Of a stretch of 64,000 nucleotides of DNA, positions 59,877 through 64,000 are shown in pieces. Made by a program: the position numbers and the translations under genes. Origin of the DNA: Rhodospirillales bacterium (lineage in GTDB: Bacteria; Pseudomonadota; Alphaproteobacteria; Rhodospirillales; Casp-alpha2); contig JAGLED010000013.1 of assembly GCA_023145215.1 (NCBI GenBank), forward strand, positions 1-64,000, read 5' to 3'. The stretch's first letter is position 1. Every line of letters starts with the position of its first letter. The notes beneath the pieces are model-generated. The model saw nothing but the letters and a program-made list of their open reading frames with translations, was not told the DNA's origin and did not search any database.

Positions 59877-60156
59877 GTTTCAGTTCCCTTTCGTGGTCAG
59901 GCGGCGAGTCGGGTCAGAACTTCTTCAATATTATTAGAACGTTTGCACTGGGTTGGGGCATGCAAGCTTAATGATGGCTCACCTGCGGGTCACGCGCCAT
60001 CGGGCAAGCGTAAGGTCGCGGGGCGTTCTGAGAATGTTGAATACGTGGCGTAAAGCGCCCTTGATCATGTCCGGCAGCATTTCTGATCCTTCCGCGAAAC
60101 TGTGCTTCAGAACCGGTTATGGAAGCATGTAGGAGAAAATATGCGGATGGGCGCGG
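59877..60156. other. Intergenic stretch without recognised features
   Basis: These 280 nt separate the dehydrogenase gene from the cupin stop. I see no gene, tRNA, terminator with a T-run or repeat. A promoter for the dehydrogenase-tauE-cobD unit (minus strand) is expected near 59890-59950 (A/T-rich ttcttcaatattattagaac), but I cannot place it with confidence. Confidence 0.5.
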
Positions 60157-60459
60157 CTACTTGAGGAACTCGATCTCGACGAAGGCGCATTCGAAGTCGT
60201 TGCCGTTGATGACGTCGTGTTCCACGCCCACTTCACGGAAATACGGGACGCCGTTCTTCATGGGGGCGATGACGCGTTCATCGGCACCCGTGTCGATTTC
60301 CAACTGGCCGTCGAAGAGGGGGACGACCACGTAATCGTATTCGTGCCGGTGCCAGCCTGTATTGTCGCCCTTGTTCTTGAAGCGCCATTCGGTCACGCGG
60401 GTGCGGTCGTTCTCAATGAACACGGTGGGGACGGCGTTGCCGGTTTTGCCTGAGCACAT
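60157..60459 (-). CDS. Small cupin-domain protein
   Basis: A 100-residue single cupin. The metal-binding motif 1 is GDNTGWHRHEYDYVVVPLFD, with His-x-His and the following Glu. The second motif is less typical (REVGVEHDVINGNDFECAFV), with one His. It starts with MCSGKTGNA. Such small cupins bind metal or act as sensors or isomerases. It starts 9 nt after the stop of the Rdx-family gene, closing the series plsY-CULT-Rdx-cupin. The reaction is unknown. Confidence 0.85.
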   Translation of the reverse strand: MCSGKTGNAVPTVFIENDRTRVTEWRFKNKGDNTGWHRHEYDYVVVPLFDGQLEIDTGADERVIAPMKNGVPYFREVGVEHDVINGNDFECAFVEIEFLK

Positions 60460-60468
60460 GACTTTATC

Positions 60469-60750
60469 CTAATTCTTGTCCGAATGGCCGAGGTCTTTGC
60501 CCGGCGCGATGACGTCACGGATCAACTGCTTCAATTCCTTGCTTTCAGGGAATCTCCCCTCGGTTTTACGATCGAAGATCACGTTGCCGTCCGGTGTCTG
60601 GATTCGAAATGTGCCGCCCTCGTCCGGAACGAGTGACAGCGCGCCCAGGTCATCTCCGAACGTAAACAACAGCTCCTGCGCCATCCAGGTTGCGCGCAGC
60701 ACGAAGCGACACGTGCGGCAGTAATGAATCTCGATGACGGGCTTGGACAT
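60469..60750 (-). CDS. Rdx/SelT-SelW-SelH family thioredoxin-like protein
   Basis: A 93-residue protein of the Rdx family. The redox motif is EIHYCRTCRFVLRATWMAQE (CxxC, where eukaryotic relatives have CxxU). LSLVPDEGGTFRIQTPDGNV and FDRKTEGRFPESKELKQLIR complete the fold. Here the second site is plain Cys, so no selenocysteine is needed. It lies 30 nt after the CULT gene and 9 nt before the cupin gene. A role in thiol redox is expected from the family but no substrate is known. Confidence 0.9.
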   Translation of the reverse strand: MSKPVIEIHYCRTCRFVLRATWMAQELLFTFGDDLGALSLVPDEGGTFRIQTPDGNVIFDRKTEGRFPESKELKQLIRDVIAPGKDLGHSDKN

Positions 60751-60780: not shown

Positions 60781-61161
60781 TCAAGCTTCGCCGCCCGGCG
60801 GGCTTTGCGTCAACGCCGTTTTGATCAGTCCGAAGAAAACGGCGGGCATTGCATCGCCGGCGAATCGCCACCCCAGATGTTCGCCGCAGCCGCGGCATAG
60901 GGCGAAATTCCATTCATATCCCGGAAACCATGAGTGCTCGCCGGTCGGCTCGCCGACATCCTCGGCCCCGGGGGCCTCCTTGAAGCACCCCACCCGAAAT
61001 ACCCGTCCCGCCGGATTGATGAAGACGCGCTCATGCCCGCCGATATCGACGGCCCACCGCATACGCGTCAGCAGGTGGCCGCATTTGGCGCAATAGATCG
61101 CGTCGTCCGTACCGGTGTCGGCTTCGGTATTCTTTTCTTCTTTGGGGGACTTCTGGAGCAT
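60781..61161 (-). CDS. CULT-domain protein (bacterial cereblon-like ligand binder)
   Basis: A 126-residue stand-alone CULT domain, the thalidomide-binding fold of cereblon. The zinc ligands are Cys24/Cys27 (YCAKCGHL) and Cys89/Cys92 (LCRGCGEH). The aromatic pocket is formed by Trp78 (HSWFPGY), Trp84 (EWNF) and Trp98 with Phe100 (LGWRF). Asn50 in FINPAGRVFRV corresponds to the Asn that contacts ligand. Length and order match the Magnetospirillum protein MsCI4; Phe100 is like the human pocket (Phe402). It starts 16 nt after plsY. The natural ligand in bacteria is not known. Confidence 0.92.
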   Translation of the reverse strand: MLQKSPKEEKNTEADTGTDDAIYCAKCGHLLTRMRWAVDIGGHERVFINPAGRVFRVGCFKEAPGAEDVGEPTGEHSWFPGYEWNFALCRGCGEHLGWRFAGDAMPAVFFGLIKTALTQSPPGGEA

Positions 61162-61177
61162 GCGCCATTATGGCACA

Positions 61178-61825
61178 TCAGGCAGAGGGAGTGACCTCGT
61201 CCGTGTCTTCCTTTTTCTCCGCCTTCTTCTGGCCGATCTTGCTTTCCTCGCCCTTGATCAGGCGGCGGATGTTGTCTTTGTGGCGGATCACCGACAGTAC
61301 AGCCAACCCCGCGGCGAAGTAGGCGATGTCCTCGTTCGAGGATATTTTCCACGCAATCACGGGGGATGCGATGATCGATGTGATCGAGGCCAATGAGGAA
61401 TATTTGAACGTACTGGCCATCACCAGCCAGACGCAGCAGGTCAGCACGCCGACCGGCCAAGACACCATCAAAAGCGCGCCCAACGTCGTCGCGACGCCCT
61501 TGCCGCCCTTGAACTTGAGCCAGACCGGAAAGTTATGACCTATGACGGCGGCGAACGCGGCGACGATTCCCGCAAGTTCGCTCATCTGCATGAAGATCAG
61601 CGCCGCGACGGCGCCCTTCGATGCATCGAGGATAAGTGTAAGAAACGCCAGGAACTTGTTCCCGGTCCTGAGGACGTTGGTCGCGCCGATGTTCCCCGAC
61701 CCGATCTGGCGGATGTCGCCCATGCCCGCCAGCCGCGTCAGCACCAATCCCCACGGGACCGATCCCAGCAGATAACCGCAAACCGCCGCAATTGCGACGG
61801 TGATATTGGGGTCGAGATTTTCCAT
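61178..61825 (-). CDS. plsY: Acyl-phosphate:glycerol-3-phosphate acyltransferase
   Basis: A 215-residue inner-membrane enzyme that starts phospholipid synthesis from acyl-phosphate. The three family motifs are GYLLGSVPWGLVLTRL, GSGNIGATNVLRTGNKFLA (glycerol-phosphate loop) and GHNFPVWLKFKGGKGVATTL. Five TM helices are expected. The last 40 residues form a Lys/Glu-rich tail. The start at 61825 (MENLDPNITV) lies 4 nt after the pyrC' stop; a longer frame would overlap that gene. Many alphaproteobacteria have dprA next; here a CULT gene follows. Confidence 0.96.
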   Translation of the reverse strand: MENLDPNITVAIAAVCGYLLGSVPWGLVLTRLAGMGDIRQIGSGNIGATNVLRTGNKFLAFLTLILDASKGAVAALIFMQMSELAGIVAAFAAVIGHNFPVWLKFKGGKGVATTLGALLMVSWPVGVLTCCVWLVMASTFKYSSLASITSIIASPVIAWKISSNEDIAYFAAGLAVLSVIRHKDNIRRLIKGEESKIGQKKAEKKEDTDEVTPSA

Positions 61826-61829
61826 GAAC

Positions 61830-63143
61830 TTAGTCGGCCACGAAAACCGTGCGCCCGTCAATGACTGTGCGGGCAACCGCACCCTGCACAAGACGACCGT
61901 CGAAGGGGGTGTTCTTTGACTTCGACAACAGCTTGTCGGCTTCGACTTTCCACCCTTTGTCGGGATCGAACAGCATCAAGTCCGCAGGCCGGCCCTGCGC
62001 CAACTTGCCGGCGCGAAGTTTAAAGAGGTCCGCAGGCGCAGCGGTGATGAAGTTCAGTGCTTCCAGGATCGAAACATGGCCGTTGTGATAAAGCTCCAGC
62101 GTGACGGCAAGCAGTGTTTCCAGGCCGACACCCCCGCTGGCAGCGACGCCGAACGGCAGCCGCTTGGATTCTTCGTCCTGCGGTGTGTGGTCGGACGCGA
62201 TGCAATCGATGGTGCCGTCCTTGATTCCCTCGACAACGGCACGGCGGTCGGCCTCTTCGCGAAGGGGCGGCGAAAGCTTGGCAAAGGTTCGATAATCGCC
62301 GATCGCGACTTCGTTGAGTGCGAAGTAGGGTGGCGAGGTGTCGCATGTCACCGGCAGCCCGCGGGCTTTTGCCTTGCGGACCGCGTCGACGGCTTCGGCT
62401 GTCGAGACATGGGCAATGTGCAGGCGGCCGCCGGTCAGTTCGACAAGGCGGATGTCGCGCTCGATCATAATGATCTCGGCCTGGCGCGGGATGCCAACAA
62501 GACCCAGGCGCGTCGCGGTCTCTCCGGCGTTCATCATGCCACCGGTGGACAGTGAAGGCTCCTCCGGGTGCTGGCAGATCAACAGGTCGAAGGTTCGCGC
62601 ATACATCATGGCGCGCCGCATGACCTGTGCATTCGCAACGGCGTTGAAACCGTCCGTGAAGGCCACGGCGCCGGATTCCGCCAAAAGGCCCAATTCGGCG
62701 ATTTCCTTGCCCTTCAAGCCCTTCGTCACGGCGCCGTAGGGATAGACTTTCGAAAGACCCTGCAGGCGTGCGCGACGGGCGACGAACTCGACCACGGACA
62801 TGTCGTCGATGACGGGATCTGTGTTCGGCAGGCAAATCATCGACGTGATCCCGCCTTTGGTGGCGGCACGGCCGGCGCTGGCCAGCGTCTCTTTGTAATC
62901 CTCACCCGGCTCACCCAGATGCACACGCATGTCGATCAATCCGGGGGCGAGGCACAGGCCCGAGCAATCAATAACCGTGATCCCTTCGAGCGCCATGTCG
63001 GCATTGACCTTGGGGCCGACCTGCTTGATCAGTTCCCCCTCGGTCAGAACGCCGCCGATCTGGTCCATGCCTGTCGCCGGGTCCAGCAGTCTGGCGCCGA
63101 CGTAGGCGACCCGGCCGGGGGTGCGGTCTCCTTTGGTCGCCAT
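61830..63143 (-). CDS. pyrC: Dihydroorotase-like PyrC' (probably inactive) subunit
   Basis: A 437-residue member of the class I dihydroorotase family whose metal sites look broken. The HxH motif plus Arg of active enzymes (DxHxHxR) reads DMRVHLGEPG, so the first His and the substrate-binding Arg are lost. The TPHH stretch is SPPY (CDTSPPYFALNE). Conserved HVSTAEAVDAVRKAKARGLP and the Asp in SDHTPQDEE remain. In Pseudomonas such PyrC' proteins are needed only to hold PyrB together. It overlaps pyrB by 1 nt (TAATG). An active dihydroorotase should be encoded elsewhere. Confidence 0.9.
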   Translation of the reverse strand: MATKGDRTPGRVAYVGARLLDPATGMDQIGGVLTEGELIKQVGPKVNADMALEGITVIDCSGLCLAPGLIDMRVHLGEPGEDYKETLASAGRAATKGGITSMICLPNTDPVIDDMSVVEFVARRARLQGLSKVYPYGAVTKGLKGKEIAELGLLAESGAVAFTDGFNAVANAQVMRRAMMYARTFDLLICQHPEEPSLSTGGMMNAGETATRLGLVGIPRQAEIIMIERDIRLVELTGGRLHIAHVSTAEAVDAVRKAKARGLPVTCDTSPPYFALNEVAIGDYRTFAKLSPPLREEADRRAVVEGIKDGTIDCIASDHTPQDEESKRLPFGVAASGGVGLETLLAVTLELYHNGHVSILEALNFITAAPADLFKLRAGKLAQGRPADLMLFDPDKGWKVEADKLLSKSKNTPFDGRLVQGAVARTVIDGRTVFVAD

Positions 63144-64000
63144 TACAGATTCCTCTGCAACGTGTCTTCGAGGTTTGCCGTCAGGATCTCGAGCGCCGCC
63201 ATGCGGACGGCGACGCCCATCTCTACCTGTTCGTGAATGGCGCTGCGGCCGAAGTCGTCGGCCACTTCGCTGTCGATCTCGACCCCGCGGTTCATCGGTC
63301 CCGGGTGCATGATCAGCGCGTTCGGCTTGGCGCCCTCGAGTTTTTCGTAATCGAGCCCGAAAAAGTGGAAGTACTCCCGGACCGATGGGAGGTAGTTCCC
63401 GTCCATGCGCTCTTTTTGAAGGCGGAGCATCATGACGATGTCGCAGTCCTCAAGGCCCTCGCGCATGTCGTTGAAGACCTCGACGCCCATATGCTCGACC
63501 CCGGTCGGAATCAGGGTGCGCGGCGCGATCAGGCGGACGCGTGCGCCCATTGTCGTCAAAAGATGGATATTCGAGCGCGCGACCCGGGAATGCAGGATAT
63601 CGCCGCAGATCGCGATCCTGAGGCCCTGAATCTTGCCGACCCGGCGGCGGATCGTGAGCGCGTCCAGTAACGCCTGCGTCGGGTGCTCATGCTGGCCGTC
63701 GCCGGCATTGATGACGGCGCAGTTCACTTTCTCGCTCAGCAGCTTGACCGACCCCGAGTCCGGGTGCCGCACGACCAGAACGTCCGGGTGCATGGCGTTC
63801 AGCGTCATTGCCGTGTCGATCAGCGTTTCGCCCTTTTTGACGGAGCTGGTGGCGACCGACATGTTGATGACGTCGCCACCGAGGCGCTTGCCCGCCAATT
63901 CGAACGATGTGCGCGTTCGCGTCGAGTCTTCGAAAAACAGGTTGATGATGGTGCGCCCGCTCAGAACGGCCTTTTTCTTGTCGGCCTGACGGTTCTGCTC
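63143..64000 (-). CDS. pyrB: Aspartate carbamoyltransferase catalytic chain (5' end missing)
   Basis: Joins carbamoyl phosphate and aspartate, the second step of pyrimidine synthesis. The gene runs off the right edge; 285 codons are visible. The carbamoyl-phosphate motif is [20 protein letters not shown], and [20 protein letters not shown] and [20 protein letters not shown] follow. The aspartate-side loop is [15 protein letters not shown]. The stop overlaps the pyrC' start by one base, which favours equal production of the two subunits of the dodecameric holoenzyme. An ATG visible at 63898 is internal. Confidence 0.97.

What the first reader, a model, noticed from the sequence alone, without database searches (positions are those of the whole stretch)
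60781..61161. Stand-alone bacterial CULT (cereblon-type) domain in the pyrB-plsY transcription unit
The protein keeps the four zinc Cys and the three-Trp cage of cereblon's drug pocket, with Phe100 where MsCI4 has Tyr and human cereblon has Phe. The role of CULT domains in bacteria is not established, so a fixed position 16 nt after plsY, with Rdx and cupin genes following, gives a rare context clue. Motifs are seen directly; the family relation is from knowledge of cereblon and MsCI4; the operon role is inferred.
Basis: partly seen in the sequence, partly recalled or inferred. Interest (0 to 1): 0.78.

Follow-up and report, generated by a model that had tools for sequence, protein, structure and literature searches.

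The report
Bacterial stand-alone cereblon-type drug-pocket protein
This small bacterial protein is a genuine relative of the part of human cereblon that binds thalidomide, with a notably human-like pocket; the family is already known in bacteria, its neighbour plsY is a local accident, and its clearest recurring next-door gene is a small protein of the Rdx family.

Summary
The ORF at 60781-61161 (minus strand, 126 aa) is a real stand-alone CULT domain. PDB sequence search finds MsCI4 at E 8e-33 and cereblon entries at 4e-17 to 4e-15; an AlphaFold2 model matches MsCI4 crystals (Foldseek E 6.8e-12). In 103 bacterial CULTs the cage is nearly invariant: W78 103, W84 103, W98 102; position 100 F 56/Y 47. 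dN/dS is 0.026-0.083 among four sister genomes.
The context clue half holds. plsY precedes CULT in one genus only, with spacers 16, 16, 16, 185 and 966 nt, and two congeners keep the locus without CULT. In the family, 14 of 14 genomes with both genes have Rdx downstream, 13 directly adjacent. gatB, an amidohydrolase and DUF1932 also recur nearby in that family. In the window's order no neighbour keeps place and strand across families.
Most likely it captures cyclic-imide or uracil-like rings; the biological use is inferred. H76 and F100 equal human residues at two pocket positions where MsCI4 differs; 7 of 103 share both. New member of a known kind.

The parts
60781..61161 (-). CULT domain protein, 126 aa, stand-alone
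   Evidence: relatives; dN/dS
61081..61092 (-). Codons of C24xxC27, first zinc CxxC
   Evidence: C in all 99 sequences with letters there, of 103; zinc role from PMC4287342 passages
61006..61017 (-). Codons of N49-P50-A51-G52, the NPxG hairpin tip
   Evidence: N 103/103, P 100/103, G 103/103; NPxG motif in PMC4449219 passages
60985..60987 (-). Codon of C59, a fifth conserved cysteine outside the two CxxC motifs
   Evidence: C in 95 of 103
60910..60936 (-). Codons of H76 to W84, with cage Trp W78 and W84
   Evidence: W78 and W84 103/103; position 76 equals human His378 by the mapping in PMC8900816 passages
60886..60897 (-). Codons of C89xxC92, second zinc CxxC
   Evidence: 103/103 each
60862..60870 (-). 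Codons of W98-R99-F100, third cage Trp and base of the cage
   Evidence: W98 102/103; position 100 F 56, Y 47
60469..60750 (-). Rdx (SelT/SelW/SelH-type) protein with C11xxC14, 93 aa; recurring direct neighbour of CULT in four genera
   Evidence: PF10262 E 6e-26, TIGR02174; linkage
60157..60459 (-). Small cupin, 100 aa; genus-level neighbour
   Evidence: PF07883 E 0.0039, 17.3 bits, below the 27.2 cut-off
61178..61825 (-). plsY, glycerol-3-phosphate acyltransferase; neighbour in this genus only
   Evidence: PF02660 E 1.4e-52
61830..63143 (-). pyrC-type (dihydroorotase-like) amidohydrolase
   Evidence: PF01979 E 1.2e-22, DHOase model E 0.006 below cut-off
63143..64000 (-). pyrB, aspartate/ornithine carbamoyltransferase type, cut by the window end
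   Evidence: PF02729 and PF00185

Best explanation
A free-standing CULT domain. Shown: sequence, zinc cysteines, aromatic cage and predicted fold are those of MsCI4 and cereblon, and the gene is under strong purifying selection. Inferred: the three tryptophans and Phe100 clasp a flat five- or six-membered ring with an imide or lactam edge (uracil/uridine, glutarimide, aspartimide), with hydrogen bonds to the backbone of His76 and Trp78. With no partner domain in the chain, it most likely acts as a passive reader or scavenger of cyclic-imide damage on protein or peptide ends, or of related free rings: an accessory, not essential, function, sometimes encoded beside the CxxC protein Rdx. My confidence is about 0.97 for family and pocket and about 0.4 for cyclic-imide reading as the biological use.
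For: Family and pocket. MsCI4 Phe77 = human His378, Trp79/85/99 = Trp380/386/400; Y101F makes the MsCI4 cage chemically identical (PMC8900816 passages). MsCI4 binds thalidomide and uridine at low micromolar affinity (PMC4449219 passages). C-terminal cyclic imides are natural cereblon ligands (PMC13001092 passages; the Ichikawa 2022 and Heim 2022 papers it cites were not read). In 15 genomes of 6 genera of the family an Amidohydro_3 gene, a superfamily with ring-opening amidases (recalled), lies 1-3 genes downstream. Accessory character: CULT in 27 of 48 family and 81 of 297 order genomes, absent at an otherwise matching locus in two congeners. Selection.
Against: No ligand was tested. PIMT, the one imide-forming enzyme checked, is so common that it tests nothing: 291 of 297 and 48 of 48 genomes at E 0.001, 272 and 43 over the curated cut-off; it also rings in 13 of 14 controls, 4 over the cut-off. 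The amidohydrolase is gone from the window, is kept without CULT in two congeners and is not beside CULT in other families except one shorter, upstream relative (G671). No protease is a recurring neighbour among the clusters printed.
Confidence: 0.55

Rival explanations
1. Pyrimidine sensor or buffer: CULT binds uracil or uridine and reports pyrimidine status to the pyrBC genes in whose unit it lies.
For: MsCI4 binds uridine (PMC4449219 passages) and uracil (PMC4287342 section 9). In the window the unit is pyrB-pyrC-plsY-CULT with spacers -1, 4 and 16 nt.
Against: pyrB and pyrC are near CULT only in this genus, 4 and 5 genomes of 103 neighbourhoods. Two congeners keep pyrB-pyrC-plsY without CULT. 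There is no DNA-binding or output domain.
Confidence: 0.15
2. CULT and Rdx form a redox pair: as in the fold relative MsrB, thiol chemistry on a bound damaged group, with Rdx as reductant acting through C59 of CULT.
For: All 14 family genomes with both genes have Rdx downstream on the same strand, in different upstream settings. A cysteine outside the zinc motifs, C59, is present in 95 of 103. Rdx has a CxxC. MsrB and GFA share the beta-tent fold (PMC4287342).
Against: Rdx linkage is not unique: gatB (8 genera), the amidohydrolase (6) and DUF1932 (8) recur nearby more widely in the same family, so the block may simply travel together. 13 of 27 CULT genomes in the family have no Rdx and 2 Rdx genomes have no CULT. 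C59 is L in the Rdx-linked CULT of G010 and G in that of G035.
Confidence: 0.09
3. No specific partner: a broadly binding small-molecule sponge whose gene drifts among operons, its neighbours being accidents.
For: In the window's order no neighbour keeps place and strand across families; settings include der/engA, PpiC, PPK2, short-chain dehydrogenases and gatB. Patchy presence.
Against: The cage is nearly invariant over 103 sequences, which argues for a specific ligand. Some neighbourhoods do recur: Rdx in the family, and a rhodanese directly downstream in three families of another order.
Confidence: 0.15

Closest known systems
MsCI4 (cereblon isoform 4, MGR_0879) of Magnetospirillum gryphiswaldense
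   Same: Single CULT domain, 50% identical over 100 aligned residues, same four zinc Cys, three Trp, NPxG and fold
   Different: Window has His76 and Phe100 where MsCI4 has Phe77 and Tyr101; the two fall in separate parts of the CULT tree, which has few columns and unsettled bootstrap values
CULT (thalidomide-binding) domain of cereblon
   Same: phmmer E 4e-17 to 4e-15, same cage residues, including the equivalents of human His378 and Phe402 (recalled)
   Different: No LON domain or DDB1-binding region in this 126-aa chain; Ala51 where human has His353
Yippee/Mis18 (PF03226)
   Same: Weak sub-threshold match, E 0.0029; reported fold relative (PMC4287342 abstract)
   Different: 18.2 against 26.6 bits: not a member by this test
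MsrB and GFA (beta-tent enzymes)
   Same: Shared fold according to PMC4287342
   Different: No Pfam hit to either at E 0.1

Membership tests
CULT domain family, bacterial stand-alone group | Significant sequence match to solved CULT domains | tested here: met
   MsCI4 E 7.9e-33, cereblon entries E 4e-17 to 4e-15
CULT domain family, bacterial stand-alone group | Two CxxC motifs for zinc | tested here: met
   C24xxC27 and C89xxC92; zinc itself not measured
CULT domain family, bacterial stand-alone group | Three cage tryptophans | tested here: met
   W78, W84, W98 align with MsCI4 W79, W85, W99
CULT domain family, bacterial stand-alone group | NPxG motif at the inserted hairpin | tested here: met
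   N49-P50-A51-G52
CULT domain family, bacterial stand-alone group | Beta-tent fold | tested here: met
   AlphaFold2 model pLDDT 83.1, pTM 0.74; Foldseek to 4v31, TM 0.89 by target length. A prediction, not a solved structure
CULT domain family, bacterial stand-alone group | No further domain in the chain | tested here: met
   126 aa, match to MsCI4 over 22-121; residues 1-17 have pLDDT under 50
CULT domain family, bacterial stand-alone group | Binds thalidomide and uridine | not testable with these tools
   needs purified protein
Cereblon (E3 substrate receptor) | LON domain and DDB1-binding region | tested here: not met
   126-aa single domain; no LON hit in Pfam at E 0.1
Yippee-Mis18 (PF03226) | Score above the curated cut-off | tested here: not met
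   18.2 against 26.6 bits
Rdx / SelT-SelW-SelH (neighbour gene) | Score above the curated cut-off and CxxC or CxxU motif | tested here: met
   PF10262 90.9 bits against 22.6; TIGR02174 58.1 against 34.2; C11xxC14

The most novel reading that the evidence does not exclude
CULT and Rdx are a two-component unit for damaged proteins: CULT captures an aspartimide or glutarimide end with its human-like cage, and a thiol step between C59 of CULT and the CxxC of Rdx processes or hands on the captured chain, perhaps with the nearby amidohydrolase opening the ring in genomes that have it. This would be a ubiquitin-free parallel or forerunner of cereblon's degron reading.
Probability: 0.06. Interest if true: 0.85.

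Novelty: new member of a known kind. Interest (0 to 1): 0.37.

Why it matters
[quoted passage not shown] This work removes a genus-specific clue (plsY), replaces it with better ones (Rdx, 14 of 14 linked in one family; a recurring amidohydrolase), and supplies natural congeners with and without CULT at a matching locus. It also points to a natural bacterial CULT with the human residues at two pocket positions where the crystallography model MsCI4 differs; PMC8900816 (passages) describes engineering MsCI4 towards the human protein for ligand work.

Tried and rejected
plsY as a functional partner: rejected. Pyrimidine link through pyrBC: demoted to a rival, as it occurs only in this genus.

PIMT co-occurrence: uninformative. 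At E 0.001 it is in 291 of 297 and 48 of 48 genomes (272 and 43 over the curated cut-off), and in 13 of 14 controls (4 over the cut-off).

Rhodanese as partner: it follows CULT directly in 5 called genomes of 3 families of another order, and in a sixth, G693, by the coordinates. But at E 1e-15 the rhodanese is in 43 of 48 genomes of that order, with or without CULT, so a dedicated partnership is not supported.

The 560-aa amidohydrolase (PF07969) as dedicated partner: downstream of CULT in 15 genomes of 6 genera of the family, but lost from the window and kept without CULT in two congeners.

Mobile or viral origin: no CULT match in the plasmid and phage collections with the window protein nor, with profile A1, in the viral contigs.

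Rows dropped: L015 and L024 (a stop inside the match) were left out of A1, which holds the window, 25 of the other 27 positive genomes, and L005. Two partial hits (G125, G114) and a second fragment in G091 were not fetched. So 79 of 81 positive order genomes were examined, plus Azospirillum L005 and 23 genomes in all. One search scanned 10 of the 60 close same-strand neighbours listed. Cluster counts are of printed clusters (the first 40 and 12), made by my own blastp grouping. Gene calls come from my own simple ORF scorer; it missed Rdx in G035, G245 and G224 and cut it short in G030, which the profile recovered. That profile was built from family members only and could miss divergent Rdx.

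Full report
1. The observation. The ORF 60781-61161 on the minus strand encodes 126 aa. phmmer against the PDB gives MsCI4 (cereblon isoform 4) at E 7.9e-33 and entries named cereblon at 4e-17 to 4e-15. Pfam and NCBIfam give nothing above cut-off; the best Pfam hit is Yippee-Mis18, 18.2 bits against 26.6. An AlphaFold2 model from a 27-row alignment (A1) has mean pLDDT 83.1 and pTM 0.74. Foldseek returns MsCI4 crystals first (4v31, E 6.8e-12) and CRBN lower (9nr3, CRBN-DDB1 with GLUL-cN, E 1e-9).

2. The pocket. The 103 bacterial CULTs are 79 genomes of the window's order, one Azospirillum, three other genomes of the class and 20 of one further order. W78 and W84 are 103/103, W98 102/103 (C in G055), N49 103/103, C89 and C92 103/103, and C24 and C27 are C in the 99 with letters there. 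Position 100 is F in 56 and Y in 47, so Phe100 is ordinary. Position 76 is F in 87, H in 13, A in 3. By the mapping printed in PMC8900816 (passages) position 76 is MsCI4 Phe77 and human His378, and position 100 is MsCI4 Tyr101; that this is human Phe402 is recalled. The window has H76 and F100; 7 of 103 share the pair, all in the window's family, though G004 of the same genus has F at 76. At position 51 (human His353) the window has Ala like MsCI4; 14 of 103 have His. A fifth cysteine, C59, is C in 95 of 103 and in MsCI4.

3. Selection. NG86 dN/dS for CULT is 0.026-0.083 in the six pairs of four sister genomes, against 0.044-0.169 for plsY. dS is near or above 1, so the ratios are rough, but constraint is clear.

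4. Distribution. CULT is in 27 of 48 genomes of the window's family, 81 of 297 of the order, 3 of 384 other genomes drawn from the class and 20 of 397 other genomes drawn from the phylum (both draws include some genomes nearer to the window). All 20 lie in one further order, where 20 of 48 carry it. None was found in plasmids, phages or viral contigs. Lupas et al. already reported bacterial stand-alone CULTs, mainly delta-proteobacterial, with a few alpha and gamma (PMC4287342: abstract, sections 9 and 10 and passages seen).

5. Gene context. In the window the order is pyrB-pyrC-plsY-CULT-Rdx-cupin with spacers -1, 4, 16, 30 and 9 nt. Of 103 neighbourhoods plsY is near CULT in 5, all in the window's genus: spacer 16 nt in G000, G001 and G002, 185 in G007, 966 in G004, the last with a 278-codon open frame on the CULT strand. 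G005 and G006 of the same genus have pyrB-pyrC-plsY-Rdx-amidohydrolase-DUF1932 (G006 also the cupin) and no CULT match there or in the genome. Both are draft genomes, 91 and 93% complete, but the site itself is covered. In the rest of the family the commoner setting is GatB upstream (Pfam): 15 genomes, 8 genera, same strand, 1 to 5 genes away. Downstream an Amidohydro_3 gene lies within 3 genes in 15 genomes of 6 genera, and a DUF1932 dehydrogenase-like gene in 16 genomes of 8 genera. In other families CULT follows der/engA (5 genomes), PpiC-type isomerases, PPK2 or short-chain dehydrogenases. In the 80 neighbourhoods no printed cluster kept strand and position across families; the widest (5 families) was on the CULT strand in 3 of 7 cases. 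In the other order a rhodanese follows CULT directly in 5 genomes of 3 families, but it is in 43 of 48 genomes there, CULT or not.

6. CULT and Rdx. In the 48 family genomes Rdx (PF10262) is in 16 and CULT in 27; Rdx rings in 2 of 14 control genomes. All 14 genomes with both have Rdx downstream on the same strand, 13 adjacent and one (G017) with a DoxX gene between. They lie in four genera: after plsY (g1), after GatB-GNAT and a divergent gene (most of g7), after GatB with DoxX inserted (g11); in g4 the contig ends upstream. The table is 14/13/2/19 (Fisher p 0.0023), not corrected for kinship. In the CULT tree the Rdx-linked rows fall in three places, with many unresolved forks and an unsettled bootstrap. 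Outside the family no Rdx was found near CULT in the stretches examined. Rdx is thus the closest recurring neighbour, but confined to one family, and the amidohydrolase and DUF1932 genes move with it, so shared synteny could explain it.

7. How it works. MsCI4 binds thalidomide and uridine at low micromolar affinity and folds its pocket on binding (PMC4449219 passages). C-terminal cyclic imides are natural cereblon ligands and can arise through PIMT (PMC13001092 passages; primary papers not read). From this and the conserved cage I infer that the protein captures imide or lactam rings. PIMT is near universal in both orders and cannot test the damage-reader idea. The redox-pair, pyrimidine-sensor and no-partner readings are kept as rivals. 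After rechecking the neighbourhoods I lowered the redox pair from 0.12 to 0.09 and the novel case from 0.08 to 0.06, because Rdx is not the only recurring neighbour.

8. Novelty. The family and its bacterial stand-alone form are known. In searches of the open-licence library I saw, from titles and abstracts listed, no paper on the gene context of bacterial CULTs; the words operon, plsY and neighbo- do not occur in PMC4287342. Most subscription papers are not held. New as far as those searches go: plsY refuted as a conserved partner, the CULT-Rdx and amidohydrolase neighbourhood, and the natural human-like residue pair.

Noticed in passing
window 59877-60156: Sister genomes carry a 560-aa Amidohydro_3 gene between the cupin and the DUF1932 gene; in the window it is gone and about 26 nt matching its 3' end remain near 59898-59923, so a deletion (or an assembly gap) is likely.
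   Followed up: partly
L205 2902-3147 and L206 7510-7626: Two genomes of the same genus have the matching plsY-Rdx locus with CULT absent, a natural comparison for function.
   Followed up: yes
L169, L174, L180, L182, L183: In another order a rhodanese-domain gene (PF00581) lies directly after CULT in three families; the rhodanese itself is in 43 of 48 genomes of that order.
   Followed up: partly
CULT tree: Family f23 falls into at least two well-supported CULT groups; the crystallographic model MsCI4 sits in the smaller (6 genomes), long-branched one, so it may not be typical.
   Followed up: partly
No name or magnetosome gene was tested.
   Followed up: no
window 60985-60987: C59, a cysteine outside the zinc motifs, is kept in 95 of 103 bacterial CULTs and in MsCI4.
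   Followed up: partly
L053 (G055): One CULT has Cys in place of the third cage Trp while its genus mate G123 keeps Trp; a possible natural cage variant.
   Followed up: no
window 60781-61161: Neither the Pfam nor the NCBIfam copy gives this protein a hit above cut-off, so such proteins may often be annotated as hypothetical.
   Followed up: no
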